From positions 372,001-436,000 of the forward strand of contig DASXUN010000021.1 in the NCBI GenBank assembly GCA_036504815.1: a DNA stretch of 64,000 nucleotides, in the 5' to 3' direction. The position numbers and the translations under genes were made by a program. This document shows, in pieces, positions 52,460-64,000 of this stretch. The first letter of the stretch is position 1. Each line of letters opens with the position of its first letter. Source of the DNA: Gemmatimonadaceae bacterium (GTDB lineage Bacteria > Gemmatimonadota > Gemmatimonadetes > Gemmatimonadales > Gemmatimonadaceae). Under the pieces are notes generated by a model that was not told where the DNA came from, made no database searches, and worked only from the letters and a program-made list of their open reading frames with translations.

Positions 52460-54766
52460 CTATTTGATGATGTACTCCTTGGGCGGAATCGCACCCATAA
52501 GATGCGTCACGAAATAATCCCAGCGACGGCGCATCATATAGTTGCCGGCCGCGCCGTATCCGTGGGCCGCGTTCGGAATCAGCAGCAGATCAAAGTCCTT
52601 GTTCGCCTTGATCAGCGCGTCCACCACCAGCATGGTGTTGTCCACCGGGACGTTGTCGTCGGCGGTGCCGTGCGCGAGCAGCAGCTTGCCCTTGAGGTTC
52701 TTGGCCTGCAGCTGGTTCGCCTCGGCGGCGTAGTTGTCGTCGCTGCCGTTGCGCACCAGGAGCCCCTGGTAGCGCTCACCCCAGTCGTCTTCGTAGTTGC
52801 GCTGGTCGTGGTTGCCTGACTCGCTGATGCCGACCTTGAAGAAGTCGGGGTAGCGGAACATCGCGTCGGCGGTGATGAAGCCGCCGCCGCTGTGCCCCCA
52901 CATCGCGGCCTTGTCGATGTCGATCCACGCGTAGCGCTTGGCCAGGTTCTGCATCCCGGCCACCTGGTCCTCGAGCGTGTTGCCGCGTCCCATGCGACCG
53001 TAGTAGTAGTCGTGGAAGCTCTTGCTGCGCCCCGGGCCGCTCCCGCGCCCGTCGATGCTCACCACGATGAACCCGAGCTCGGCCAGCGCCTGCTTGTCGC
53101 CGCGCGCCGCGCTGAAGGCTCGGCTCCCCACGGAACCCGACTGCGGTCCCGGGTAGGCGTTGTTGATGATCGGGTACTTCTTGGTGCTGTCGAAGTTGGT
53201 GGGGCGGAAGAGCTGGCCGTAGATGTCGGTCTTGCCGTCAGCCGCCTTCACGCTGAATAGGATGGGCGGCTTCCAGCCCGCGGCCACCAGCTTGCTGATG
53301 TCGGCCTTCTCGAGCTCCATCACCAGCTTGCCCTTGGCGTCGCGCAGCGCGCTCACCGGCGGGGTGTCGGCGGTGGAATAAGTATCAACCAGATACTTAT
53401 TGTCGGGCGAGAGCCGGATGGTGTGCGTCCCCACGTCGGGGGTGAGCAGCACGGCCGGCCCCTTGCCGTCGAGCGTGGTGCGGAAGGCGTGGGCCAGGTA
53501 CGGGTCCTGCCCCGCCACGCGCCCCTGCGCCAGGTAGGTGATAGTGCGCGCCTTTTCGTCGATGCTGACGATCTCGCTCACCGGCCCTTCGCCGGTGGTG
53601 ATCGCGTTCTTCAGCTGGCCGGTGGTGAGATCATACAGGTAGAGCTGCGACCAGTCATCGCGCTGCGAGTTCCAGATGATCTCGTTCGAGTTCCAGAGCA
53701 CGCGGTAGCCGGTGATGGATTCGAACTGGGTGCTGACCGTTTCCTTGAGCACGTCGCGCACTTCGCCGGTGGCCGTGTTGGCGACGCGGAGGGTGACGCC
53801 CTTGTGGTCGCGCGGGGTGGAGGCGATGGCGAGCATGGAGCCGTCGTCCTTCCACTGCAGGTCGTCCATGGAGATGTCATCGCCGAGCATGGCCCGGTGG
53901 AAGTCCGGGGCCATCTTGAGGCGGGTGACCGTCTTGGACTCCACGTCAATGACGACGCGGTGGATCATGGAGACCACCGAATCGCCCGGGAACGGGTACT
54001 TCCACGATTCCAGCTTCGGGGCGCCCACCTGGTAGCGCACCATATGGAAGTCGGAGAGCTTGCGATCGTCCTGCTGCTGGGTGGCGATCTTCTTTGAATC
54101 CGGCGACCACTTGAGGACGGCGCGGGCGGAGTGGACCCAGCCTGCATTGTCAGTGGCGTAGCCGAAGTTCGGGGTGCCGTCGGTGGTGAGCTGGGTGACG
54201 GCGTTGGTGGCGACGTCGCGGACGTAGAGGTTCCAGTCTCTAATGAAGGCGGCCTTCTTGCCGTCGGGGGAGGTGACCTCGAGGGTGCGAGGGCCGCGGC
54301 GCCCCATCATCCCCGGCATGCCGGTGGCGGCCGCGTCGCCCAACTGCTTGCAGGCGTACGCCTTGAGGTCGCAGGCGTAGCGCTTGCCGGCGGTGCTGAA
54401 GGAGAGCGTATCGCGCTTGGGCGAGAGGTCGGCAGTCATGAAGGGGAGGGCATCTGCCTTGTAGCTCCCCCCTGACGCCGTGTTGACGGCGGCGGCCAAC
54501 TTTGCGTGGTCGAAGAGCGGGGCCGCCTTCTTCTTGGCCGGGTCGACGAGGATCCAGCTGACGCCATCCGGGCGGGTGGCGCGGTAGTAGAACTTCCCGT
54601 CGGGAGTCCACGTGGGATTCACCTGGCCGCCAACGACAAGGGCGTTGACGTTCTGACCGAGCATCTTGACGGCGCGGTCGTAGTCGGCGGTGGTGAGTTG
54701 CTTGTGGCCCTGGGCGGGAAGGGCGAGGGGAAGGGCGAGGGTGAGTATTAGCGAGCTGGAGCGCAT
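52460..54766 (-). CDS. Exported S9 dipeptidyl-peptidase IV-like peptidase
   Basis: From ATG 54766 this 768-aa protein has a signal peptide (MRSSSLILTLALPLALPAQG). The N-terminal two thirds is a DPPIV-type beta-propeller (VNPTWTPDGKFYYRATRPDG, VTSPDGKKAAFIRDWNLYVR); the C-terminal alpha/beta-hydrolase has ISIDGRGSGPGRSKSF-like, AAMWGHSGGGFITA (nucleophile Ser), LLAHGTADDNVPVDNT (Asp) and PNAAHGYG (His). It would cleave dipeptides from peptides in the periplasm. The longer frame upstream lacks a signal. Confidence 0.9.
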   Translation of the reverse strand: MRSSSLILTLALPLALPAQGHKQLTTADYDRAVKMLGQNVNALVVGGQVNPTWTPDGKFYYRATRPDGVSWILVDPAKKKAAPLFDHAKLAAAVNTASGGSYKADALPFMTADLSPKRDTLSFSTAGKRYACDLKAYACKQLGDAAATGMPGMMGRRGPRTLEVTSPDGKKAAFIRDWNLYVRDVATNAVTQLTTDGTPNFGYATDNAGWVHSARAVLKWSPDSKKIATQQQDDRKLSDFHMVRYQVGAPKLESWKYPFPGDSVVSMIHRVVIDVESKTVTRLKMAPDFHRAMLGDDISMDDLQWKDDGSMLAIASTPRDHKGVTLRVANTATGEVRDVLKETVSTQFESITGYRVLWNSNEIIWNSQRDDWSQLYLYDLTTGQLKNAITTGEGPVSEIVSIDEKARTITYLAQGRVAGQDPYLAHAFRTTLDGKGPAVLLTPDVGTHTIRLSPDNKYLVDTYSTADTPPVSALRDAKGKLVMELEKADISKLVAAGWKPPILFSVKAADGKTDIYGQLFRPTNFDSTKKYPIINNAYPGPQSGSVGSRAFSAARGDKQALAELGFIVVSIDGRGSGPGRSKSFHDYYYGRMGRGNTLEDQVAGMQNLAKRYAWIDIDKAAMWGHSGGGFITADAMFRYPDFFKVGISESGNHDQRNYEDDWGERYQGLLVRNGSDDNYAAEANQLQAKNLKGKLLLAHGTADDNVPVDNTMLVVDALIKANKDFDLLLIPNAAHGYGAAGNYMMRRRWDYFVTHLMGAIPPKEYIIK

Positions 54767-54930
54767 GCGGGCCCTATCTATAGAAGAGGGAAGGAATTGA
54801 AGATGGGCGGGGGGAGTGCGAAGCGGCAACTGGATCTTCATCGCAACTAGCAAACCTTTGACTAGCGCTTCGTCTCAGGATCTCGCAGTCTAAACCTCGT
54901 TACGCCGATCTCCAGCGATGTGAGGACCGA

Positions 54931-55677
54931 ATGGAAGCTGGCGGGATCTTCGTCGGACAAATCATCACCGCGGCCGGCCTCATTCTTGGCGTGCTACTCG
55001 CCTACCTGCAGGTGCAAAAGAATCACGCGGCGGCGTTGAAGCTACAGGAAGCACACCTTCGGAACGACCTAAAGCTCAGGCTGTACGATCGCGTCTCAGA
55101 GAGGTTTTCTACCTGCTCCTCTCTGCTTAGCAAAGCGCATTTCGTGCACACAGGGGTCTTCTCGGCATGGCACATGCGCGTGCGGCAAGGGTTCAGTGTA
55201 GCGCCCCAGCAGCTCGCGAGTGAAATGTCGGAGACCGCCCACGCCGGTGCGGCGAGCGTCAACGCCGTCCTCGAGATCGTCGAGCACTACGAGATTGCCT
55301 TTCCGCGTTTCGAGACGATTAGGCGTGAGCTCTCGGAGAAGCACCGAGAGTTGCTGGCAGCGCAGACCGCTCTATGGAACGCGATCATGATGTTCCTTCC
55401 GTTTGCAGATGCCACGACCGGCACGAAGGTAGGTCCTCTTGGATTCCCGACCGAGATCCAGTTGGCGGAGTTCGGATCTTTGCACACCAAGTACCAGGAT
55501 GTCTGCAATGATATCTCCGGATACATGATCGACCTGCAGATTGAAGCGCAGAATGAACTCCTGGGAGAGCTATTCGGGCGTACGGTCCCCCCGCGCAGTC
55601 CGCTGGACCCGGTGCACCAAGTCCTCGCACGCGATCCTTCGGAGGTCAAACAGCGTCCCCCTGGGCGACTCATCTAG
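54931..55677 (+). CDS. Cassette gene 1: membrane-anchored hypothetical protein (248 aa)
   Basis: The N-terminus holds one membrane helix (GGIFVGQIITAAGLILGVLL) followed by a long, mostly helical soluble region with a possible coiled coil (LQVQKNHAAALKLQEAHLRN). No enzymatic motif is seen. I do not recognise a family. It begins 26 bp after a core-like GTTACGC and is followed 9 bp after its stop by attC1. Small membrane-anchored proteins of this sort are common among integron cassettes. Confidence 0.7.
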   Translation: MEAGGIFVGQIITAAGLILGVLLAYLQVQKNHAAALKLQEAHLRNDLKLRLYDRVSERFSTCSSLLSKAHFVHTGVFSAWHMRVRQGFSVAPQQLASEMSETAHAGAASVNAVLEIVEHYEIAFPRFETIRRELSEKHRELLAAQTALWNAIMMFLPFADATTGTKVGPLGFPTEIQLAEFGSLHTKYQDVCNDISGYMIDLQIEAQNELLGELFGRTVPPRSPLDPVHQVLARDPSEVKQRPPGRLI

Positions 55678-55686
55678 CACTCGACG

Positions 55687-55820
55687 CCCTAACGGCGCTT
55701 GGTGCAGCCGGCCGTGCTTCGGAAGCGCGAGCGGGGACACCGCTGAGTGGATGGGCTGGTCAGCAGTGGCCCCGCTCTCACAGTTTATTGGAACGGCCGC
55801 AGCACAAGCCATCGTTAGGC
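55687..55820 (+). other. attC1 (cassette recombination site), 134 bp
   Basis: Terminal boxes CCCTAAC (55687-55693) and GTTAGGC (55814-55820) are inverted, the latter a perfect GTTRRRY. Inside, GCTTG (55697-55701) pairs with CAAGC (55805-55809) and GCCGGCCG with CGGCCGC, offset by unpaired bases as in attC sites; deeper, GAGCGGGG (55729-55736) pairs with CCCCGCTC (55770-55777). The whole element folds on itself. Confidence 0.75.
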
Positions 55821-55841
55821 AACTTAAAACCATCAGATCGA

Positions 55842-56453
55842 ATGAAGAAGAATGGCATCTTCCGATGGATGGCGACCGGCTCGGGCTTCCTAGAGCGCGC
55901 CCGTGTTTCACTTCGAGCATTCGATGAGCAGGGCGACGTCCAGCAACTCTTCGTGGCCGCGCTTATGCTGCGATTTGGCATTGAAGCGCGCCTGTTCGAG
56001 TACATCTATGCCGAGTTGCCAACAGACACCCGTGACGATGACATCAAGAAGATCTCGGACTTCGCCGCGACGAGACTCCTAGCTCGCCTCGTCGAATTGA
56101 ACCCACGAACCACCAAGCAGACGACGCACGTGTTCCGTCGAGCCGATGGTGGACAGGCGTTCGGCTTTCGCTACACACCTGTGACGAAGAGCCTTGCCGC
56201 AATTCACGGTCGCCTTGGTGGGCTTCTCCATTTCAACTACTTCAGGAAGAACTCTGAATGGTACGTCGACCAGCGGCCAGCCGCCGCCAGCGGCAACACT
56301 ATCCTGACCAGTCGCGATCTCATCGCGCAAGGAATCGAGGAACTCGCGCAAGCTACCTCTGGGACACTCCTCAACAACCCGACATTTGCACGAGAAGTCG
56401 CCGCTTTGAGGGAAGACTTGCAGGAACTCTCTACGCAGAACGGAGAAGTGTAA
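55842..56453 (+). CDS. Cassette gene 2: hypothetical protein (203 aa)
   Basis: From ATG 55842 (MKKNGIFRWMATGSGFLERA) the protein is soluble and mostly helical. Stretches such as ARVSLRAFDEQGDVQQLFVA, LRFGIEARLFEYIYAELP and SLAAIHGRLGGLLHFNYFRK suggest an all-alpha, HEPN-like or similar fold, but no R-x4-6-H signature is clear and I do not assign a family. It begins 22 bp after attC1; its stop TAA lies 10 bp before attC2. Visibly lower GC than the chromosomal genes. Confidence 0.7.
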   Translation: MKKNGIFRWMATGSGFLERARVSLRAFDEQGDVQQLFVAALMLRFGIEARLFEYIYAELPTDTRDDDIKKISDFAATRLLARLVELNPRTTKQTTHVFRRADGGQAFGFRYTPVTKSLAAIHGRLGGLLHFNYFRKNSEWYVDQRPAAASGNTILTSRDLIAQGIEELAQATSGTLLNNPTFAREVAALREDLQELSTQNGEV

Positions 56454-56463
56454 CGCGCCAGTT

Positions 56464-56568
56464 GCTTAACAAGCCGCTGCTGCCGACGAACGCAGGTGCA
56501 TTTGGTAGCGGCCGCTCCGCGGCCGCATTCTATTAGAGCGTTCGCAGCAGAACGCCGAGTCGTTATAC
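56464..56568 (+). other. attC2, 105 bp
   Basis: Left box GCTTAAC (56464-56470, perfect RYYYAAC) and right box GTTATAC (56562-56568). CTGCTGC and GAACGC on the left pair with GCGTTCGCAGCAG on the right, with extra unpaired bases on one side; the centre is a GCGGCCGC / GCGGCCGC hairpin. Its 3' half (56504-56556) is nearly identical to that of attC3. Confidence 0.75.
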
Positions 56569-56577
56569 CGATTCAAC

Positions 56578-57321
56578 ATGACCTTTCCGCATCCCGATGA
56601 TTTGGTTGGCATTCTCGCGGACGTGAAGCTTCTCGCGAAACGGTACCTTGCACTCACAGGGCGCCCTCTCGGCGTTACTGGGGAGATCGCGGAATTCGAA
56701 GCCGTCCGGTTGCTAGGCTTGGAGCTCGCGCCCGTGCGCCAATCGGGATGGGATGCGCTCGACCGCGCCACCGGCATTCGGTATCAAATAAAAGGTCGCG
56801 TTCTCAAGCCTGATGCCGGACCCGGGCAACGCCTCGGTTCCCTTACCGCCGCAAAAGAGTGGGACGCGGTGCTCCTCGTGATCCTCGATGAGAACTACGA
56901 GGCTCAGGTCATTTGGGAGGCAGCGCGAGACGCTACGCTGGCACGACTCGAGCGTCCTGGATCGAGAGCCCGCTCCGAACGTGGACAGCTTGGAGTTCAG
57001 GAACTCATCCGCGTCTCGAAGCTGCGGTGGGGCACTCCCTCATCCACGCGACGTCGGCCACTCGTGTCAAATGCCGCGGAGCTGCGATCGGACGGTGCGG
57101 TGCGCTACAAGTTCTCGCGTCTCGGATTCAAGGCTGACATCATCGAGCCGCTTCCTGACGACGGAGTCTTCGAAGTTGAGACTCCCAGAGGTCTCTTCCG
57201 GATGACGAAGCGAGATTTCGCGGTTGTCTTCGCCGCCGTACGCGCCTCCAAGAGCTACCAGGAAGGTCGTCTGTATCATTTTCCGCAGGTGCCGAAGCGC
57301 GCTGAGCGGTTCAGGGTGTAA
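56578..57321 (+). CDS. Cassette gene 3: DUF6998-like restriction-endonuclease-fold protein
   Basis: This 247-aa protein has an N-terminal domain LAKRYLALTGRPLGVTGEIAEFEAVRLL, then a segment with QSGWDALDRATGIRYQIKGR. The order E - D - Q-x-K is that of a PD-(D/E)xK-type nuclease core, and the sequence resembles DUF6998-type proteins. The C-terminal ~90 residues (FSRLGFKADIIEPLPDDGVFEVE) look like a separate small beta-rich domain. Start ATG 56578 is 10 bp after attC2. Nuclease activity is inferred only from the motif. Confidence 0.7.
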   Translation: MTFPHPDDLVGILADVKLLAKRYLALTGRPLGVTGEIAEFEAVRLLGLELAPVRQSGWDALDRATGIRYQIKGRVLKPDAGPGQRLGSLTAAKEWDAVLLVILDENYEAQVIWEAARDATLARLERPGSRARSERGQLGVQELIRVSKLRWGTPSSTRRRPLVSNAAELRSDGAVRYKFSRLGFKADIIEPLPDDGVFEVETPRGLFRMTKRDFAVVFAAVRASKSYQEGRLYHFPQVPKRAERFRV

Positions 57322-57322
57322 G

Positions 57323-57442
57323 TGTCAACGCGCAACGGCATTACAGGTCCATGCGCGCTGATGAGCGCGGGTGTCTTCGGTAGCGGAGGCTGTGCGGCCG
57401 CGTTCTATTTGAGCGTTCGCAGCAGAACGCCATGCGTTAGGC
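57323..57442 (+). other. attC3, ~120 bp (left boundary uncertain)
   Basis: Right box GTTAGGC (57436-57442) is a perfect GTTRRRY. The left box is less clear (TGTCAAC at 57323 or GCGCAAC at 57330). Positions 57379-57431 match attC2 (56504-56556) at 47 of 53 bases, including TGAGCGTTCGCAGCAGAACG-like sequence. The left half pairs poorly, so the element may be chimeric or degraded. Confidence 0.65.
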
Positions 57443-57477
57443 AGTATCGGCATCTCCTCCCTTGACTCCAGATTCCC

Positions 57478-58107
57478 ATGAGTGCAAGTGCGTTTGGCCA
57501 TCGTGCGATCAACCGACCGGACGGAAGCACTGCAGAAGCCTGGTTCGGCTACACGTGCGGACATTGCGGAAACAAGGTCTCAGGTGCCGTTCTCGCATGG
57601 GTGGGCAAGTCGCCTGGGGGTGTCATCCGCTGGCTTCAATGCTCCCAGTGCCACGACGCCTCCGTACAAGCAGACTCCGGCGAGGTTTATCCCGGAGTGG
57701 CCTTCGGTCCCAGTGTGGAAGGGCTCCCGCCAGACGTTGAACGGGCGTACGAAGAGGCTCGCCGTTGCATGTCTGTCAGCGCGCTCACGGCAACCGAGAT
57801 TCTTTGCCGGAAGATTCTCATGCACGTCGCAGTCGATAAGGGAGCCGAGCAAGGCGCCACCTTCGCTTCCTACATCGACCATCTCATCGACGAGGGATAC
57901 GTCACGCCTCCCATGAAGGAGTGGGTGAATCTTATCAAGAAGCACGGCAACGACTCGAACCACCGACTCGAAGCGCCTGACCGTGGACGAGCCGAAGGCA
58001 CCATTTACTTCACGGCGCAGCTGCTGCGAACGGTGTACGAAATGGCGCACCTTGCGACACGTTTCGGCGCTGGGCTGAACGCAAATCCTGCGGTCGGTGA
58101 GGCCTAA
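57478..58107 (+). CDS. Cassette gene 4: DUF4145 protein with zinc ribbon
   Basis: This 209-aa protein starts with a four-Cys zinc ribbon (YTCGHCGNKV and LQCSQCHDAS) and continues with a DUF4145 helical domain: ARRCMSVSALTATEILCRKI, LIDEGYVTPPMKEWVNLIKK, HGNDSNHRLEAP and IYFTAQLLRTVYEM. DUF4145 domains often accompany restriction-modification and other defence genes. It begins 35 bp after attC3, and its stop TAA is embedded in GCCTAAC (58102-58108), a perfect RYYYAAC box, as is common in cassettes. Confidence 0.82.
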   Translation: MSASAFGHRAINRPDGSTAEAWFGYTCGHCGNKVSGAVLAWVGKSPGGVIRWLQCSQCHDASVQADSGEVYPGVAFGPSVEGLPPDVERAYEEARRCMSVSALTATEILCRKILMHVAVDKGAEQGATFASYIDHLIDEGYVTPPMKEWVNLIKKHGNDSNHRLEAPDRGRAEGTIYFTAQLLRTVYEMAHLATRFGAGLNANPAVGEA

Positions 58108-58184
58108 CCCATGTTGGTACCGACGGCGGTAGCTAAAGCAGCGGGCACGGCGGCAGCCAGACGGCATCCGTCATCAAGATGTGA
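58102..58184 (+). other. Possible attC4, left half only
   Basis: A perfect RYYYAAC box (GCCTAAC, 58102-58108) overlaps the DUF4145 stop, but no GTTRRRY partner is visible before the next start at 58185. It may be a degraded attC marking the 3' end of the array. Confidence 0.4.
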
Positions 58185-60185
58185 ATGACAACTCCTGACC
58201 ATCAGTTGCTCGCCCCAGCCTACTTCGAAGCGTCGGCGCCCGACTTTCTTGCAAAGTCGGACAATGAGGTGCTCGGGGAGATGGCAAGGAGTTCTGCGTT
58301 CCCGCTTACAACTGAAGCCATCGGCGCATGGTCGGCCCAGTTGCCAATCATTCGCGAGGCCGTCGCCGGCCTTGAAGGCGTGGTCTTTCTTGAGTTCGAC
58401 ATCCCACGCCTTGGGAGTCGAGTGGACTGCGTCCTTGTCTCCGGAGCAGCGGTCATCCCGATGGAGTTCAAGGTTGGCGCCCGGCACTATAATCGAGAGG
58501 ATTACAACCAATCGTGGGACTACGGCCTAGACCTCAAGAACTTCCATCGGGCAAGCCATAGCGCCGCGATCTTCCCGATTCTCATCTGCACGGCAGCTAC
58601 GACCAGCGACAGCAGATGGCGGGAGCCGCACCGAGACGACGTGTACCCGCCGGCAAAGTGCAACGCTTCCGGCGTTCGCGCTCTTGTGCAGCAGGCAGTA
58701 GCCCTCGCCACGGGCGCAGCGATCGATGGCCCAGCCTGGGGTAGATCACCCTATCAGCCGACTCCAACCATTGTTGAGGCCGCCCAAGCTCTCTACGCGA
58801 GACATTCGGTCGAAGCTATCGCGCGGCACGACGCGGGAGCTCAAAACCTGAGTGTCACGTCGTTCCGGGTGGAACAGATCGTTGACGACGCAGCCCAACG
58901 AGGGCGCAAGGCCATCGTCTTTGTCACGGGTGTACCGGGCGCTGGTAAGACACTCGTCGGGCTCAATGTCGCCACAAGGCGTCGCGATCGGCTAAATCAG
59001 ACTCACGCAGTCTTTCTTTCCGGCAATGTGCCACTCGTACGCGTGCTGCGAGAAGCACTGGTACGAGATGAGCACACGCGGCAAGCCGCAACGCGCGCCA
59101 AGCCCGATCGAGAGCGCAAGGGAGCGATTGCGAATCGCGTCGAGCAGTTCATCCAAAGCGTGCACCACTGGCGAGACGACGGACTGCGGAATTCCGGCGC
59201 CCCCGACGATCACGTCGTCATCTTCGATGAGGCACAGCGTGCATGGGATCGACAGAAGACGGCGGACTTCATGCGCCGCAAACGCGGACTCCATGACTTC
59301 TCACAGTCCGAGCCCGAGTTCCTGCTGAACTATATGAACCGTCGACAAGATTGGGCGGTAGTAATCTGCCTAGTCGGCGGTGGGCAAGAGATCTACGATG
59401 GCGAGGCAGGGATCGGCGGCTGGCTCGATGCCGTTGCTGAGCATTTTGCTGGCTGGGATGTGTACATCTCACCATCCCTCGCCGACTCTGAATACACCGC
59501 GGAGTCAGCAATCGCAAATGTGTCAAGCAGAGCCGCTGTGAATCGTGAGACTGATCTTCACCTAAAGACGTCAATGCGCTCGTTTCGCGCCGAGAACGTT
59601 TCAGCGTTCGTGCGCCAGACACTTGATCTCGAGCTAAGCCAAGCGGCTGAGTCGCTGCGCCAAATGGATCGATATCCATTGGCGCTCACGCGCGATCTGG
59701 CGGCAGCCAAGTCCTGGATACGTGCCAACGCGCGAGGGTCCGAACGGTTCGGACTAGTGGCGTCATCATCGGCCAAGCGACTGAAGCCGTACGCAGTTGA
59801 TGTGCGGGTTGAAGTCGATCCGGTGCATTGGTTCCTGAACGACGCCACGGACACACGCTCGAGTTTCTACCTGGAAGATGCAGCCACTGAGTTTCAGGTA
59901 CAGGGACTCGAACTTGATTGGATCTGCATGAACTGGGACGCCGATCTGCGGCGACATGGCGACGGATGGAACTTCAACGAATTCCGCGTAGATGGCTGGC
60001 GGAAGATCCGACAAGAACGCCGGCAGAGATACCTACTCAATGCGTACCGCGTTCTTCTCACGCGGGCCCGGCAAGGCATGGTGATCTTCGTGCCCGAAGG
60101 GTCGAAGGATGATCCGACGCGGCGCGCTGAGTACTATGATGAGACGTACTCGTATCTGGCCAAGTTGGGTATTGCGCAGGTCTGA
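58185..60185 (+). CDS. DUF2075 nuclease-helicase (Schlafen-like P-loop) protein
   Basis: This 666-aa protein has an N-terminal nuclease-like region (VFLEFDIPRLGSRVDCVLVS then VIPMEFKVGARHYNRED, a D-x(n)-E-x-K arrangement) and a DUF2075/Schlafen-type SF1-like helicase core: VFVTGVPGAGKTLVGLN (Walker A), HVVIFDEAQRAWD (Walker B), WAVVICLVGGGQEIY (motif III), TSMRSFRAENVSAFV and a C-terminal NAYRVLLTRARQGMVIFVPE (motif VI). Related proteins are found in defence islands. It lies 77 bp after cassette gene 4 and before an HNH gene. Defence function is inferred. Confidence 0.82.
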   Translation: MTTPDHQLLAPAYFEASAPDFLAKSDNEVLGEMARSSAFPLTTEAIGAWSAQLPIIREAVAGLEGVVFLEFDIPRLGSRVDCVLVSGAAVIPMEFKVGARHYNREDYNQSWDYGLDLKNFHRASHSAAIFPILICTAATTSDSRWREPHRDDVYPPAKCNASGVRALVQQAVALATGAAIDGPAWGRSPYQPTPTIVEAAQALYARHSVEAIARHDAGAQNLSVTSFRVEQIVDDAAQRGRKAIVFVTGVPGAGKTLVGLNVATRRRDRLNQTHAVFLSGNVPLVRVLREALVRDEHTRQAATRAKPDRERKGAIANRVEQFIQSVHHWRDDGLRNSGAPDDHVVIFDEAQRAWDRQKTADFMRRKRGLHDFSQSEPEFLLNYMNRRQDWAVVICLVGGGQEIYDGEAGIGGWLDAVAEHFAGWDVYISPSLADSEYTAESAIANVSSRAAVNRETDLHLKTSMRSFRAENVSAFVRQTLDLELSQAAESLRQMDRYPLALTRDLAAAKSWIRANARGSERFGLVASSSAKRLKPYAVDVRVEVDPVHWFLNDATDTRSSFYLEDAATEFQVQGLELDWICMNWDADLRRHGDGWNFNEFRVDGWRKIRQERRQRYLLNAYRVLLTRARQGMVIFVPEGSKDDPTRRAEYYDETYSYLAKLGIAQV

Positions 60186-60206
60186 GGCACCCGCTTCTTC
60201 GGTGCC
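60186..60206 (+). terminator. Weak hairpin after the DUF2075 gene
   Basis: GGCACC (60186-60191) pairs with GGTGCC (60201-60206) across a 9-nt loop, followed by AATTT. Possible terminator or attenuator before the HNH gene. Confidence 0.4.
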
Positions 60207-60240
60207 AATTTGATGGTGTGTCTCACAGCCCGCGTGAACT

Positions 60241-61173
60241 GTGAAAGCATACGTTGCGGTTACTGACGGGGACTGGTTTCGGTTTCTGAGTGAACAGCCA
60301 GGAATCGATGAGGTCAACTTCTGGCAGCCTGGTGGTGGACGAGGCTTTAATGTCCTGACACTGGGCGCTCCCCTGCTGTTCAAGCTTCACGCGCCAAACA
60401 ACTTCATCGCTGGTGGAGGGTTCTTCGCGTCTTTCTCGCGGCTACCGATCAGCATCGTCTGGGAGACCTTTGGCGAGAAGAATGGAGTCGGCTCGTATGC
60501 TGCGATGCGAGCCCGCGTTGAACACTATAGGCGAAAGGGCGCGAATCCGCACGAAGACTATGAGATCGGGAACATCATCCTAGAAGACCCGTTCTTTTTG
60601 CCTCGAGAACAGTGGATTCCGGCCCCGACGGACTTCGCGCCAAGTGTAGTACAAGGCAAAGGCTACGATCTGACGCAGCCCGTAGGGCGTGCACTTTGGG
60701 ATGCAGTGATAGCAGCCCGTAGCGAAACGAAGGGTCGAGTTGCAGAGCGACCCGTCCAGATTGATGGGCCGATCTATGGCGAAGCGACACGCGGTCGTGT
60801 GCGGCTCAGGCAGGGCGCCTTTCGCGTGATGGTAACAGACGCTTATAGTCGGCGATGTGCCATTTCTGGTGAAAAGGCACTGCCCGTCCTTCAAGCGGCA
60901 CACATCAGACCAGTAGCAGAGGGCGGGCAGCATCGCCTAGACAACGGCCTGTTGCTTCGCTCAGACGTGCACACGCTCTTTGACCGGGGATATATCACTG
61001 TCACGCCCGAGCACGAAGTGCTCGTGGCCAGCAAAGCGCTGAAAGATGATTTCGACAATGGCGAGCCATATGCGCCGTTTCACGGGAGCAGGATTCTGTT
61101 GCCGGGAAATGAGGATGAGCGACCGTCCCGCGAGCAACTGCAGTGGCATAACGACACATTGTTCCGCGGTTAG
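60241..61173 (+). CDS. HNH endonuclease with N-terminal EVE/PUA-like domain
   Basis: This 310-aa protein starts at GTG 60241. Residues ~1-100 (VAVTDGDWFRFLSEQPGIDE, FVNFW-like strands and LLFKLHAPNNFIAGGGFFAS) resemble an EVE/ASCH (PUA-like) domain. The C-terminus is an HNH_2 domain: FRVMVTDAYSRRCAISGEKA, QAAHIRPVAEGGQHRLDNGL and DVHTLFDRGYITV. EVE-HNH fusions are known as candidate modified-DNA-dependent restriction enzymes. The MazG-like gene follows within 8 bp. The N-terminal assignment is by resemblance only. Confidence 0.78.
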   Translation: MKAYVAVTDGDWFRFLSEQPGIDEVNFWQPGGGRGFNVLTLGAPLLFKLHAPNNFIAGGGFFASFSRLPISIVWETFGEKNGVGSYAAMRARVEHYRRKGANPHEDYEIGNIILEDPFFLPREQWIPAPTDFAPSVVQGKGYDLTQPVGRALWDAVIAARSETKGRVAERPVQIDGPIYGEATRGRVRLRQGAFRVMVTDAYSRRCAISGEKALPVLQAAHIRPVAEGGQHRLDNGLLLRSDVHTLFDRGYITVTPEHEVLVASKALKDDFDNGEPYAPFHGSRILLPGNEDERPSREQLQWHNDTLFRG

Positions 61174-61181
61174 GAGGAAGG

Positions 61182-61535
61182 ATGGCCGATCGACTCGCTG
61201 AAATAGTCACACGCCTCCGCGAGTTTGTCGCCGAGCGTGACTGGGCGCAGTTTCATGACCCCAAGAACCTCGCGATGGCGGTTGCGAGCGAGGCGGGGGA
61301 ACTGCTAGCGGAGTATCGGTGGGTCTCAAGCACCGAAGCAGATGCCTGGTCCAAAGATCCGGCTAACCGGAATCGCGTCGCGATGGAGGCGGCGGACGTC
61401 GGAATAGCGTTGTTACTGCTTTGTGATCGCATCGGCGTTGATCTGCCGAACGCGATTGGCCAGAAGATCGAGCTCAACGCGCAGAACTATCCCGTAAATG
61501 CCTCTCGGGGCCGCGCTCTAAGGCCGGAGCTCTAG
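61182..61535 (+). CDS. MazG-like nucleotide pyrophosphohydrolase
   Basis: This 117-aa protein fits the all-alpha NTP-PPase (RS21-C6/dCTP pyrophosphatase) fold: HDPKNLAMAVASEAGELLAE (E-x2-E metal site) and VAMEAADVGIALLLLCDRIG (E-x2-D). It hydrolyses NTPs or dNTPs to NMP and PPi. The start has AGGAGGAAGG upstream and lies 8 bp after the HNH gene, so they are coupled. Nucleotide depletion could complement restriction during phage attack; that is inferred. Confidence 0.82.
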   Translation: MADRLAEIVTRLREFVAERDWAQFHDPKNLAMAVASEAGELLAEYRWVSSTEADAWSKDPANRNRVAMEAADVGIALLLLCDRIGVDLPNAIGQKIELNAQNYPVNASRGRALRPEL

Positions 61536-61565
61536 GTATCGGTTATCAGACTGTGCTGCGTCGTT

Positions 61566-61913
61566 TTAGCGGCTGTCACCCTCGCAATACGGACACTGCT
61601 CATACAAGTCGCTGTCCCACGCAGCATCACATGTGTCGCATACCTCAAGAGCCGTATCGGGTGCTTCGTCCACAATGACGTCGTGTGGCACAGGCTTGGC
61701 ACTACTGCAGTACGCCAGCCGATTCACCAGATGATAGCCGGACGTGAGCAACGGGCCGAACGGACCGTCCACGAGGGTCCATAGCGTGCGCGACTTGCGA
61801 TGGGCGCGAATAACACCGGGATCGATGACGCCGGTGCGCAGTGCTGGTAACTCGCTGATCGGGCCGAACTCGGCCGAAATCGCATCGGGCGACATCAGAC
61901 GTTGAATGGTCAT
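61566..61913 (-). CDS. Hypothetical protein with C-terminal zinc ribbon (115 aa)
   Basis: The protein starts MTIQRLMSPDAISAEFGPIS and has RTLWTLVDGPFGPLLTSGYH in the centre. The C-terminal VCDTCDAAWDSDLYEQCPYC segment holds two C-x2-C pairs, as in a rubredoxin-like or zinc-ribbon fold. I do not recognise a family. It is convergent with the MazG-like gene. Confidence 0.7.
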   Translation of the reverse strand: MTIQRLMSPDAISAEFGPISELPALRTGVIDPGVIRAHRKSRTLWTLVDGPFGPLLTSGYHLVNRLAYCSSAKPVPHDVIVDEAPDTALEVCDTCDAAWDSDLYEQCPYCEGDSR

Positions 61914-62319
61914 ATCGTTTGCCCGTAGGGGTTCTTCTGTTGTTGTTCGGCGGCTCCGTTAGGGCATACGTCGCGCGCTCTTTCGGCGTAACGCAAGGGA
62001 GCACTGTGTGCTGGGCATAAGCGACTCCCGTGGCTAGTACGTGCAATGTGCCGTCTAGGCACTGAAACGGAGACAGCGCCAGCATTCCAAATGCGAGGGC
62101 GAATATCGGGATGGAAGCGGTGACGCTGACTCAGCCTGCGACGTGCTCAATGTGAGACGTCATACGCGTGAACGCGAATCATCCAGCCGCTTGCGGAGCA
62201 CCTCACGTTCAAAATATGCGGGCAACAGAAGACTCCCAGCGACCTTTCGATCGCCGGAAGTCAGGTTGCGCTCGCGGGCTGGTGCTCTCTTTCTCGCCCG
62301 TATTTGCGCGACTACGTCG
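61914..62319. other. Gene-poor gap
   Basis: About 400 bp without a convincing gene. Only short frames occur. CGTTAGGGC at 61957 and GGCGTAACGC at 61984 loosely resemble cassette core boxes, but no paired palindrome is evident. The region presumably holds the promoter of the 115-aa gene and the 3' end of the lipoprotein transcript. Confidence 0.5.
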
Positions 62320-63171
62320 CTACTGCTTCTTGCTGCTGCCGAACTCGTCCGGCAGGGTCGGTCCTCCCCAGCCCAGGTTTCTTGCGGCAGCCCAACTGAT
62401 ATTGTTGAACCTCAAATCGAACACGTAGTAACCGTTGGACGTTGGCGACGTGGTGCTCTCGTTGCGGAATATGCCGCGGAAATACCCGCTGTAGTCCGTC
62501 GCGTTCTTGGTATTCCTGTAGAAGCCCTTTGGATTCTCGATCCCGGACAGGCCGATGGCGACGAGTTCATAGTCGTAGGTCAGGAACGTGCCCCTGGTTA
62601 CCTCGCCACTTCCGGGCTGTCCGCAAGCGTTCCACAACCGGGCGTAATCTTGGGGATCTTCTCTTGAAGGATAGGTCGCGTTCCGACCCTTGACGGTTAC
62701 CGTGAATGTCTCCAGGTCCTTGCTCCACCATGCGCTCTGGTTTTGCCAGGTGTCGGCATTCTCGTCGGCCATCTGAGCAAAGCCTTCGTTGACGTTGCTC
62801 GGGTTCGCTCTGCCGTCGTTTGCGAACCAGTTGGTCAGGACGACGTTATTGTCGATGTAGTACTCCGGCGCATTCCTGACCACGAAGAGCGCACCGTCCC
62901 GCTGCGGCCACGCGACGTCAGAGCAGCGTGCGTTGCGCCCGCTCTTTGCGTCGGCCCACGTGTCGTACACTGACACGCTGCCGGTGTAGCCGAACCGCTC
63001 GGACGACGCGTAGAAGTGGTCGCCGCCCGCTGACGCACTCTGTCCTTGCGACTGGAAGGCCGTGGACTGCCGTGCCACCGCGGCCTCGTTGCCGGCTATA
63101 CTCGTCGGCTCCGTCGTGCATCCAGTTGAAGTCAGCACGACCGCTGCGACAATCGCTGCGGAATATCTCAT
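62320..63171 (-). CDS. Hypothetical lipoprotein (283 aa)
   Basis: The N-terminus MRYSAAIVAAVVLTSTGCTT is a lipoprotein signal with the lipobox Cys at STGC. The mature part is rich in Gly, Ser, Asn and aromatic residues (GYTGSVSVYDTWADAKSGRN, WQNQSAWWSKDLETFTV) and looks beta-rich. Two Cys outside the signal (ARCSDVAW and LWNACGQPG) could form a disulfide. No family recognised. It ends in KKQ close to a low-complexity region. Lower GC than the chromosomal genes, so probably acquired. Confidence 0.7.
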   Translation of the reverse strand: MRYSAAIVAAVVLTSTGCTTEPTSIAGNEAAVARQSTAFQSQGQSASAGGDHFYASSERFGYTGSVSVYDTWADAKSGRNARCSDVAWPQRDGALFVVRNAPEYYIDNNVVLTNWFANDGRANPSNVNEGFAQMADENADTWQNQSAWWSKDLETFTVTVKGRNATYPSREDPQDYARLWNACGQPGSGEVTRGTFLTYDYELVAIGLSGIENPKGFYRNTKNATDYSGYFRGIFRNESTTSPTSNGYYVFDLRFNNISWAAARNLGWGGPTLPDEFGSSKKQ

Positions 63172-63466
63172 CTCTCGCCTACCTCAGAAATTGAAGGACA
63201 CCTGTGGTGAAGAGCGATTAGTTCGGGGCGATCAATACCACCTCACTGTCAAAGGGGCGTCAGGGCGCCTACTGCGTGATTCCTTAGAACGGCTATCTCT
63301 TTACGCCGTGCTGGAGTGTGTAGAGGTTTCCCTCGCCCGGTGTAAGGGTTTCGAATGAACTTCCGCCTCCGTCCTCGTGTGCCTCGCCGTCACTGAGAAG
63401 CGCTGCTCCGCGCGGCAGTCGCACTGCGTGCTAACGGTCGATTACCAGCTAGCTTCCTTCCACTGA
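63172..63466. other. Intergenic region before recQ
   Basis: About 295 bp with no gene-like frame. It presumably carries the recQ promoter and the divergent lipoprotein promoter. A GCGTGCTAACGG string at 63427 loosely resembles a cassette core box but has no pair. Confidence 0.4.
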
Positions 63467-64000
63467 ATGCCCACCCCCGCCCTCACCGTCCTAACCACCG
63501 TCTTCGGCTACCCCTCCTTCCGCGGTAATCAGGCGGAGGTGATCGAGCACGTCGCCGCCGGCGGCGATGCCCTGGTGCTGATGCCCACGGGGAGTGGCAA
63601 GTCGCTCTGCTACCAGATCCCGGCCCTCATGCGCCCGGGCGTCTGTGTCGTGGTCTCGCCCCTCATCGCCCTCATGCACGACCAGGTGGCTGCGCTAGGC
63701 GAACTGGGTGTCCGTGCCGCCTATCTCAACTCGACGCTCAGCGCCACCGAGGCCGCCGCCGTCGAACGTCAGGTCCGCGCCGGCGAGCTCGACCTCGTCT
63801 ACGTTGCCCCCGAACGCCTGCTCACCGATCGCTGCCTGCAGCTGCTCGAGTCGTCCACGCTCGCGCTCTTCGCCATCGATGAAGCCCACTGCGTCTCGCA
63901 GTGGGGGCACGACTTCCGTCCAGAGTACATCCAGCTCTCGGTCCTGCACGAGCGCTTCCCCGCCATCCCGCGCATCGCGCTCACCGCCACGGCCGACCGC
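63467..64000 (+). CDS. recQ: RecQ-type ATP-dependent DNA helicase, N-terminal part (truncated by window)
   Basis: From ATG 63467 the frame is open to the window end (178 codons). It reads VFGYPSFRGNQAEVIEHVAA, LVLMPTGSGKSLCYQIPA (Walker A with the RecQ-type S-L-C-Y-Q-I-P), VVVSPLIALMHDQVAAL (Ia), FAIDEAHCVSQWGHDFRPEY (DEAH box plus the RecQ aromatic-rich loop) and IALTATADR (III), all in RecQ order. It unwinds DNA during recombination and repair. GC is back at the chromosomal level here, so the accessory block ends before it. Confidence 0.92.
   Translation, partial: MPTPALTVLTTVFGYPSFRGNQAEVIEHVAAGGDALVLMPTGSGKSLCYQIPALMRPGVCVVVSPLIALMHDQVAALGELGVRAAYLNSTLSATEAAAVERQVRAGELDLVYVAPERLLTDRCLQLLESSTLALFAIDEAHCVSQWGHDFRPEYIQLSVLHERFPAIPRIALTATADR

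What the first reader, a model, noticed from the sequence alone, without database searches (positions are those of the whole stretch)
56578..61535. Defence-like gene set: PD-(D/E)xK protein, DUF4145, DUF2075 nuclease-helicase, EVE-HNH, MazG
Within 5 kb lie a nuclease-fold protein, a zinc-ribbon/DUF4145 protein, a nuclease-helicase, an HNH endonuclease with an EVE/PUA-like domain, and a nucleotide pyrophosphohydrolase. The last three are closely spaced and same-stranded. EVE-HNH proteins are proposed modification-dependent restriction enzymes and MazG-like enzymes can deplete nucleotides. As a set they could be an undescribed anti-phage module next to a cassette array.
Basis: inference. Interest (0 to 1): 0.7.

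Follow-up and report, generated by a model that had tools for sequence, protein, structure and literature searches.

The report
Modified-DNA cutter paired with nucleotide hydrolase
Next to an array of mobile gene cassettes, a bacterium carries a likely anti-phage gene set in which an enzyme expected to cut chemically modified DNA is paired, here and in distant relatives, with an enzyme expected to destroy cytosine DNA building blocks.

Summary
The five genes are present at the stated coordinates, but they are not one module. The first two (PD-(D/E)xK, DUF4145) are integron cassettes inside the array. The last three form a compact operon that is not a cassette. Its conserved core is the last pair: a PUA-like (ASCH/EVE-type)-HNH endonuclease followed 8 nt later by a MazG of DCTPP1 (dCTP pyrophosphatase) type. 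In 395 genomes of the phylum, 15 of 25 strong MazG matches lie within 70 nt of a relative of this HNH protein, and 20 of 25 beside it or a Schlafen-group-3 (SLFN-g3, old DUF2075) helicase, always same-stranded (0.01 HNH neighbours expected by random placement). SLFN-g3 is a recurrent but optional partner: the window's subfamily (PADLOC candidate PDC-S41) has no MazG beside it at 24 related loci, and a same-genus genome carries it alone in the same hotspot. Best reading: type IV-like restriction of cytosine-modified phage DNA coupled to hydrolysis of (modified) dCTP. Whether MazG starves the phage or protects the host from its own nuclease is open. No paper describing the association was found. 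Defence itself is inferred, not shown.

The parts
55684..55823 (+). attC-like recombination site closing cassette 54931-55677
   Evidence: Folds as a long imperfect hairpin with complementary ends CCTAACG...CGTTAGG; z -3.89, 0 of 200 shuffles as good
56463..56567 (+). attC-like site closing the cassette with ORF 55788/55842-56453
   Evidence: Same repeat family as 4 copies on contig C4 of the same genome; fold z -2.75
56578..57321 (+). Cassette gene: PD-(D/E)xK protein like PADLOC mREase_II (modification-directed type II nuclease); a separate system
   Evidence: PADLOC PDLC03209 E 3.6e-38; repeats on both sides
57340..57445 (+). attC-like site closing the PD-(D/E)xK cassette
   Evidence: Same repeat family; weaker fold, z -1.50
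57478..58107 (+). Cassette-like gene: DUF4145 protein; its own closing attC not found
   Evidence: Pfam 5.5e-12; PADLOC PD-T7-4 only 1.2e-6; 58101-58184 does not fold as attC, z -0.48
58185..60185 (+). SLFN-g3 nuclease-helicase, PDC-S41 subfamily; N-terminal PD-(D/E)xK-like motif (E70, D81, E94-x-K96) and SF1 helicase (Walker A 249-256, DEAQR 348-352)
   Evidence: PF09848 8.9e-76; PDC-S41 1.5e-264; residues invariant in 18 and 10 sequences; model pLDDT 80, VIA Z 19.2 UvrD, 18.7 SLFN11
60241..61173 (+). PUA-like (ASCH/EVE-type)-HNH endonuclease, predicted modification-dependent nuclease; H221, N235, H244 conserved
   Evidence: HNH_2 2.5e-12; profile hits VcaM4I 1.9e-13 over the HNH part; residues invariant in 40 sequences; model pLDDT 88, VIA Z 13.1 VcaM4I, 13.8 TagI, 11.9 ASCH
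61182..61535 (+). MazG of DCTPP1 type, predicted (modified) dCTP pyrophosphatase; E37, E40, E69, D72, W21, H25, W47 conserved
   Evidence: Closest PDB relatives RS21-C6/DCTPP1, E 4e-23; residues invariant in 21 sequences

Best explanation
The HNH and MazG genes form a two-gene, modification-dependent (type IV-like) restriction module, joined here by an SLFN-g3 nuclease-helicase. Proposed mechanism: the N-terminal PUA-like domain flips out and recognises a modified cytosine in phage DNA and licenses the C-terminal HNH domain to cut. MazG, a DCTPP1-type pyrophosphatase, hydrolyses dCTP and C5-modified dCTPs, lowering the supply of the phage's modified precursors or keeping them out of host DNA. 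The SLFN-g3 protein (PD-(D/E)xK-like nuclease plus SF1 helicase) would act on cut or replicating phage DNA as a second, optional effector. Shown: gene identity, intact catalytic residues, HNH-MazG co-occurrence on one strand in many genomes, recurrence of MazG with SLFN-g3. Inferred: defence, cytosine-modification specificity, substrate of MazG, functional coupling of the SLFN-g3 protein in this window.
For: 15 of 25 strong MazG matches (E<1e-20) in 395 phylum genomes lie within 70 nt of an HNH relative and 20 of 25 beside HNH or SLFN-g3, all same strand; 0.01 HNH neighbours expected by random placement. 14 of 27 full-length HNH relatives have MazG. Pair distances correlate (15 pairs, r 0.78, 0 of 5000 permutations). 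In G042 the HNH stop and MazG start overlap. All three genes together in G221 (SLFN-g3, MazG, HNH, second HNH) and, within about 5 kb, in L016, L021, L041, L052. MazG near SLFN-g3 on plasmids of Halomonas, Marivirga, Halalkalicoccus, Priestia, Nocardiopsis eucommiae and L. plantarum (6 of 23) and beside HNH_2 in N. flavescens. MazG next to other predicted modification readers: MrcB_N in Priestia, EVE+NOV_C in G131. Homologues: VcaM4I binds 5mC/5hmC (PMC7897488, abstract and one section); DCTPP1 prefers dCTP and 5-methyl-dCTP (PMC4491611 passages). Foreign base composition: 57-61% GC in the island against 66% for the window.
Against: Most HNH relatives in the named-genome scan lack MazG: adjacent in 3 of 57 loci (L009, L050, L051), so HNH can work alone or with a second HNH. 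The PDC-S41 subfamily has no MazG beside it at 24 related loci, some cut by contig ends. G376 carries that helicase alone at the same locus. 16 of 23 plasmid MazG relatives have neither SLFN-g3 nor HNH in the stretch viewed (and annotations). The MazG profile was built from loci partly chosen for a nearby HNH, which favours that neighbour. No phage, nucleotide or cleavage data.
Confidence: 0.5

Rival explanations
1. Hotspot juxtaposition: the helicase (a stand-alone candidate, PDC-S41) and the HNH-MazG pair are two independent systems that landed side by side between the DPP-type peptidase and RecQ, as the cassettes did.
For: Same-genus G376 has the helicase alone next to the peptidase and G174 has it at a contig end there; G114 has peptidase and RecQ 134 nt apart; G031 carries a helicase-N-domain/Fic protein in the same gap. 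0 of 24 PDC-S41-type loci have MazG.
Against: 55-nt same-strand spacing. PDC-S41-type helicase also lies beside the HNH in L047 (convergent) and L053 (same strand), and 3.8 kb away in G086; MazG joins a different SLFN-g3 subfamily in many lineages.
Confidence: 0.4
2. Self-protection: MazG does not attack the phage but cleans the host pool of modified dCTPs, so that the host's own DNA does not become a target of its modification-dependent HNH.
For: DCTPP1 hydrolyses 5-methyl and other C5-modified dCTPs (PMC4491611, PMC7162842, passages). Bell et al. 2020 note MutT-type pyrophosphohydrolases next to SauUSI type IV homologues (PMC7641849, passage). NUDIX/MutT genes also sit near MazG-SLFN-g3 in Priestia and L. 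plantarum.
Against: Many HNH relatives live without MazG. MazG also pairs with SLFN-g3 without any HNH.
Confidence: 0.3
3. Abortive infection by nucleotide depletion: infection activates MazG to drain dCTP, like known dCTP deaminase and dGTPase defences (recalled, from no call).
For: DCTPP1 accepts plain dCTP; MazG is listed among predicted but untested defence domains in PMC13092281 (section 8).
Against: No sensor or regulatory domain on the 117-aa MazG.
Confidence: 0.2
4. Not defence: a DNA repair or nucleotide housekeeping operon.
For: SF1 helicase, nuclease and sanitising hydrolase all occur in repair (general knowledge).
Against: Patchy distribution (29 and 84 of 395 genomes), hotspot with an empty site, carriage of relatives on plasmids, match to a defence-candidate model.
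Confidence: 0.08

Closest known systems
VcaM4I, EVE-HNH modification-dependent restriction endonuclease (PDB 6yex)
   Same: N-terminal PUA-superfamily domain, C-terminal HNH, similar length; profile 1.9e-13 over the HNH part, VIA Z 13.1 over 224 residues
   Different: No sequence match over the N-domain, which is structurally nearer to ASCH domains; VcaM4I's gene context was not examined
TagI, SRA-HNH (PDB 6ghs)
   Same: Same nuclease fold and layout (Z 13.8, 111 residues)
   Different: Sensor domain is SRA
DCTPP1 / RS21-C6 dCTP pyrophosphatase
   Same: E 4e-23; metal-binding acidic residues and the RDWxQFHxPxNL motif conserved
   Different: Bacterial, in an operon with a nuclease; substrate untested
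PADLOC PDC-S41 (phage defence candidate) / SLFN-g3 helicases
   Same: E 1.5e-264 over residues 12-665
   Different: The model name marks it as a single-gene candidate (reading of the name, recalled); here followed by HNH and MazG
SauUSI homologues with adjacent MutT (Bell et al. 2020)
   Same: Modification-dependent restriction gene beside a nucleotide pyrophosphohydrolase (passage)
   Different: Different nuclease and different hydrolase fold

Membership tests
EVE-HNH modification-dependent restriction enzymes (VcaM4I type) | C-terminal HNH nuclease with conserved catalytic residues | tested here: met
   HNH_2 2.5e-12; H221, N235, H244 invariant in 40 sequences
EVE-HNH modification-dependent restriction enzymes (VcaM4I type) | N-terminal PUA-superfamily domain of the EVE type | tested here: inconclusive
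   PUA superfamily clear; ASCH Z 11.9 (137 aligned, rmsd 3.1), EVE 2eve Z 8.1 (130 aligned, rmsd 3.9), THYN1 7.8; no EVE hit in Pfam
EVE-HNH modification-dependent restriction enzymes (VcaM4I type) | Cuts DNA only when it carries modified cytosine | not testable with these tools
   Needs purified enzyme
SLFN-g3 / PDC-S41 | PF09848 helicase domain and full-length PDC-S41 match | tested here: met
SLFN-g3 / PDC-S41 | N-terminal nuclease with PD-(D/E)xK residues | tested here: inconclusive
   E70, D81, E94, K96 invariant; the fold of this domain alone was not searched
DCTPP1-type MazG | Best relatives are dCTP pyrophosphatases; ExxE...ExxD metal site | tested here: met
DCTPP1-type MazG | Hydrolyses dCTP and C5-modified dCTP | not testable with these tools
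   Enzymology needed
Integron gene cassette (SLFN-g3-HNH-MazG operon) | attC site at the 3' end | tested here: not met
   No copy of the repeat beyond 57445 in the window, no attC-like pattern printed for 54601-64000 (a strict pattern that also missed the known sites), 58101-58184 z -0.48
Integron gene cassettes (54931-58107) | attC sites between genes and an integron integrase in the genome | tested here: met
   Three sites; IntI-like integrase on C27, 307 bits, below the model cut-off of 435
PD-T7-4 (DUF4145 gene) | Full-length match to the PADLOC model | tested here: inconclusive
   E 1.2e-6 over positions 44-154 of 211

The most novel reading that the evidence does not exclude
Pairing a modification-dependent nuclease with a nucleotide-pool sanitiser is a general design of type IV-like immunity. 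The nuclease destroys phage DNA with modified bases, and the DCTPP1-type MazG (or NUDIX/MutT in other versions) destroys the modified dNTPs set free or made during infection, either blocking modified phage genomes at source or keeping modified bases out of host DNA, a form of self-immunity without a methyltransferase. SLFN-g3 nuclease-helicases, MrcB_N, EVE-NOV_C and PUA-HNH proteins are exchangeable partners around this hydrolase.
Probability: 0.3. Interest if true: 0.8.

Novelty: new variant of a known kind. Interest (0 to 1): 0.57.

Why it matters
MazG-type hydrolases have been predicted but not validated as defence genes (PMC13092281, section 8). A conserved partnership with a probable modified-cytosine nuclease gives a concrete substrate guess and a cheap test. 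It would also address how cells with modification-dependent nucleases keep modified nucleotides out of their own DNA.

Tried and rejected
Five-gene module: rejected. Cassette structure separates the first two genes, and neither accompanies HNH or SLFN-g3 relatives as a full-length gene (110 loci; 3 PDDEXK partial hits, 0 DUF4145).

HNH-MazG gene fusion in G046 (L172): first read as a fusion (note). Comparison with its sibling G042 shows a frameshift and a 39-nt deletion, so it is not used as fusion evidence. It is still counted as a pair.

SLFN-g3-HNH-MazG as a cassette: rejected, no closing attC. A strict text pattern for attC printed nothing, not even the known sites, so it carries little weight.

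EVE as the exact domain class: not settled; ASCH scores higher, while EVE and YTH rows sit at Z 7-8. Foldseek ranks VcaM4I first, then ASCH.

Gene calling: two home-made gene callers mis-called genes in GC-rich loci. Counts therefore rest on stop-to-stop ORFs with profiles and on genome-wide positions.

Viral contigs: SLFN-g3 in 11 loci, MazG in 5; no three-gene set seen in those 16 loci. Neighbour clustering gave no other frequent partner that could be named.

Rows dropped before counts: only MazG matches with E<1e-20 were used (25 places). The weaker rows start at 1.3e-11 and were treated as other MazG families or fragments; the list itself was cut ('more matches are not listed'). HNH rows used were the 34 best plus G109 (2.9e-11), added because it adjoins MazG. 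SLFN rows were those above 40 bits plus the G191 fragment (24.6 bits), added because it adjoins MazG. G045 and G224 show identical coordinates and may be near-duplicates. The 24 PDC-S41-type loci are L132-L151 and L179-L182; one of them (L149) keeps the N-domain only; shorter fragments were left out.
Full report
What is there. The window is G000:C21:372001-436000.

Cassettes versus operon. Imperfect palindromic repeats of attC type close the ORFs ending at 55677, 56453 and 57321. Two of them belong to a repeat family that also occurs four times on contig C4 of the same genome. DNA folding gives z -3.89, -2.75 and -1.50 for the three sites. An integron-integrase-like gene lies on contig C27. 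So the PD-(D/E)xK gene is a cassette, and the DUF4145 gene is cassette-like but lacks a recognisable closing attC (58101-58184, z -0.48). The three following genes have no such repeat at their end. They are same-stranded with gaps of 55 and 8 nt, and a ribosome-binding sequence overlaps the HNH stop.

Locus history. In same-genus G114 the flanking DPP-type peptidase and RecQ are 134 nt apart. G376 has only the SLFN-g3 gene next to the peptidase, and G174 has it at a contig end beside the peptidase. G031 has, in the same gap, a protein whose first ~143 residues are 64-65% identical to this helicase's N-domain and whose remainder is a Fic domain. None of the nine other same-genus genomes in the phylum sample matched the HNH protein. 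This is an exchange hotspot; the island has 57-61% GC against 66% for the window.

The conserved core is HNH plus MazG. Fifty-seven loci encoding HNH relatives were found in named genomes. MazG is directly adjacent in three (L009, L050, L051), an SLFN-g3 helicase lies within about 5 kb in six (L016, L021, L041, L047, L052, L053), and a second HNH protein is a more common neighbour (11 loci). Inside the window's own phylum the picture is stronger. Of 395 genomes, 84 have an HNH match, many of them C-terminal only, 202 have any MazG match and 199 any PF09848 match, 93 over the cut-off. Of 25 strong MazG matches, 15 lie within 70 nt of an HNH relative, 7 within 2 kb of an SLFN-g3 domain, 20 beside either and 2 beside both (the window and G221), all on the same strand; random placement predicts 0.01 HNH neighbours. 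Without the window the figures are 14, 6, 19 and 1 of 24. Of 27 full-length HNH relatives 14 have MazG (13 of 26 without the window). Pairwise distances of 15 HNH-MazG pairs correlate (r 0.78; 0 of 5000 permutations), which shared descent of the genomes could also produce. Caveat: the MazG profile was built partly from MazGs that had been found near HNH.

SLFN-g3 as a recurrent, optional partner. The helicases beside MazG in L016, L021, L161 and L052 belong to another SLFN-g3 subfamily (PF09848 E 1.4e-86 or better); L041's was grouped with them by a home-made profile and by PADLOC hits. G221 carries SLFN-g3, MazG, HNH and a second HNH in a row. In the plasmid collection, using the window's MazG alone as query, 23 records matched and all 23 neighbourhoods were viewed, 3.5-5 kb each side where the record allowed. 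SLFN-g3 lies near MazG in six (Halomonas, Marivirga, Halalkalicoccus, Priestia, Nocardiopsis eucommiae, L. plantarum), and HNH_2 directly follows MazG in N. flavescens, so 7 of 23 have a partner. In Priestia the order is MutT, MrcB_N, MazG, SLFN-g3; in L. plantarum NUDIX, PLD/DEAD helicase, MazG, GIY-YIG-SLFN-g3. Against this, the window's own PDC-S41 subfamily has no MazG at 24 related loci, so its union with HNH-MazG here may be recent.

Mechanism. The HNH protein model (pLDDT 88) matches VcaM4I (Z 13.1), TagI (13.8) and, for the N-domain, ASCH (11.9) ahead of EVE (8.1). VcaM4I's EVE domain flips 5mC/5hmC into a pocket (PMC7897488, abstract and the EVE section read). The MazG is closest to DCTPP1/RS21-C6 (4e-23); that enzyme prefers dCTP and 5-methyl-dCTP (PMC4491611 passages; PMC7162842 passages). 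Both proteins thus point to cytosine modification, which I take as the best reading: cut the modified DNA, hydrolyse the modified (or plain) dCTP. The SLFN-g3 protein keeps nuclease-type and helicase motifs and aligns with UvrD and human SLFN11. Every step of function is inferred.

Prior work. DefensePredictor lists MazG among predicted, unvalidated defence domains (PMC13092281, section 8). Bell et al. 2020 describe EVE-HNH proteins and MutT-like genes beside SauUSI homologues, with no occurrence of MazG or DUF2075 in the main text (PMC7641849, word search and passages). A 2025 review of restriction describes TagI and VcaM4I as two-domain enzymes (PMC12707154, passages). Searches for the association found none (PDC-S41 by name: 0 papers). 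The library lacks most subscription papers and bioRxiv.

Noticed in passing
L149:7579-8880 (G031:C31): Same-genus hotspot protein: first ~143 residues 64-65% identical to the window's SLFN-g3 N-domain with its E/D/ExK residues, remainder a Fic domain with HPFLDGNGR. The N-domain seems to be an exchangeable module.
   Followed up: partly
window:56578-57321, residues 156-247; L134:7814-8968, L151:3021-3986, L179:9059-10186: The C-terminal domain of the PD-(D/E)xK cassette protein recurs in larger proteins encoded directly upstream of SLFN-g3 genes in three genomes.
   Followed up: no
window:58185-60185: The model of the bacterial SLFN-g3 protein, N-domain included, aligns with the linker plus helicase of human SLFN11 (residues 387-899; Z 18.7, rmsd 7.5), hinting that the linker of human Schlafens may derive from a nuclease-like domain (domain borders of SLFN11 recalled).
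   Followed up: no
L187:516-2021 (G131:C30): An EVE plus NOV_C protein directly follows a DCTPP1-type MazG: another modification reader beside this hydrolase.
   Followed up: partly
L011, L012, L015, L016, L031, L036, L039, L041, L042, L043, L050, L152, L161, L173: A second HNH_2 protein often neighbours the PUA-HNH gene, perhaps a two-nuclease unit.
   Followed up: partly
G000:C27:1149-2102; L007 (G000:C4:160000-179900): Integron integrase on a 9.3-kb contig and a further attC-bearing array on C4; the window's array has no integrase beside it.
   Followed up: partly
window:54931-55677 and 55788-56453: Two cassette ORFs upstream without any Pfam or PADLOC family.
   Followed up: no
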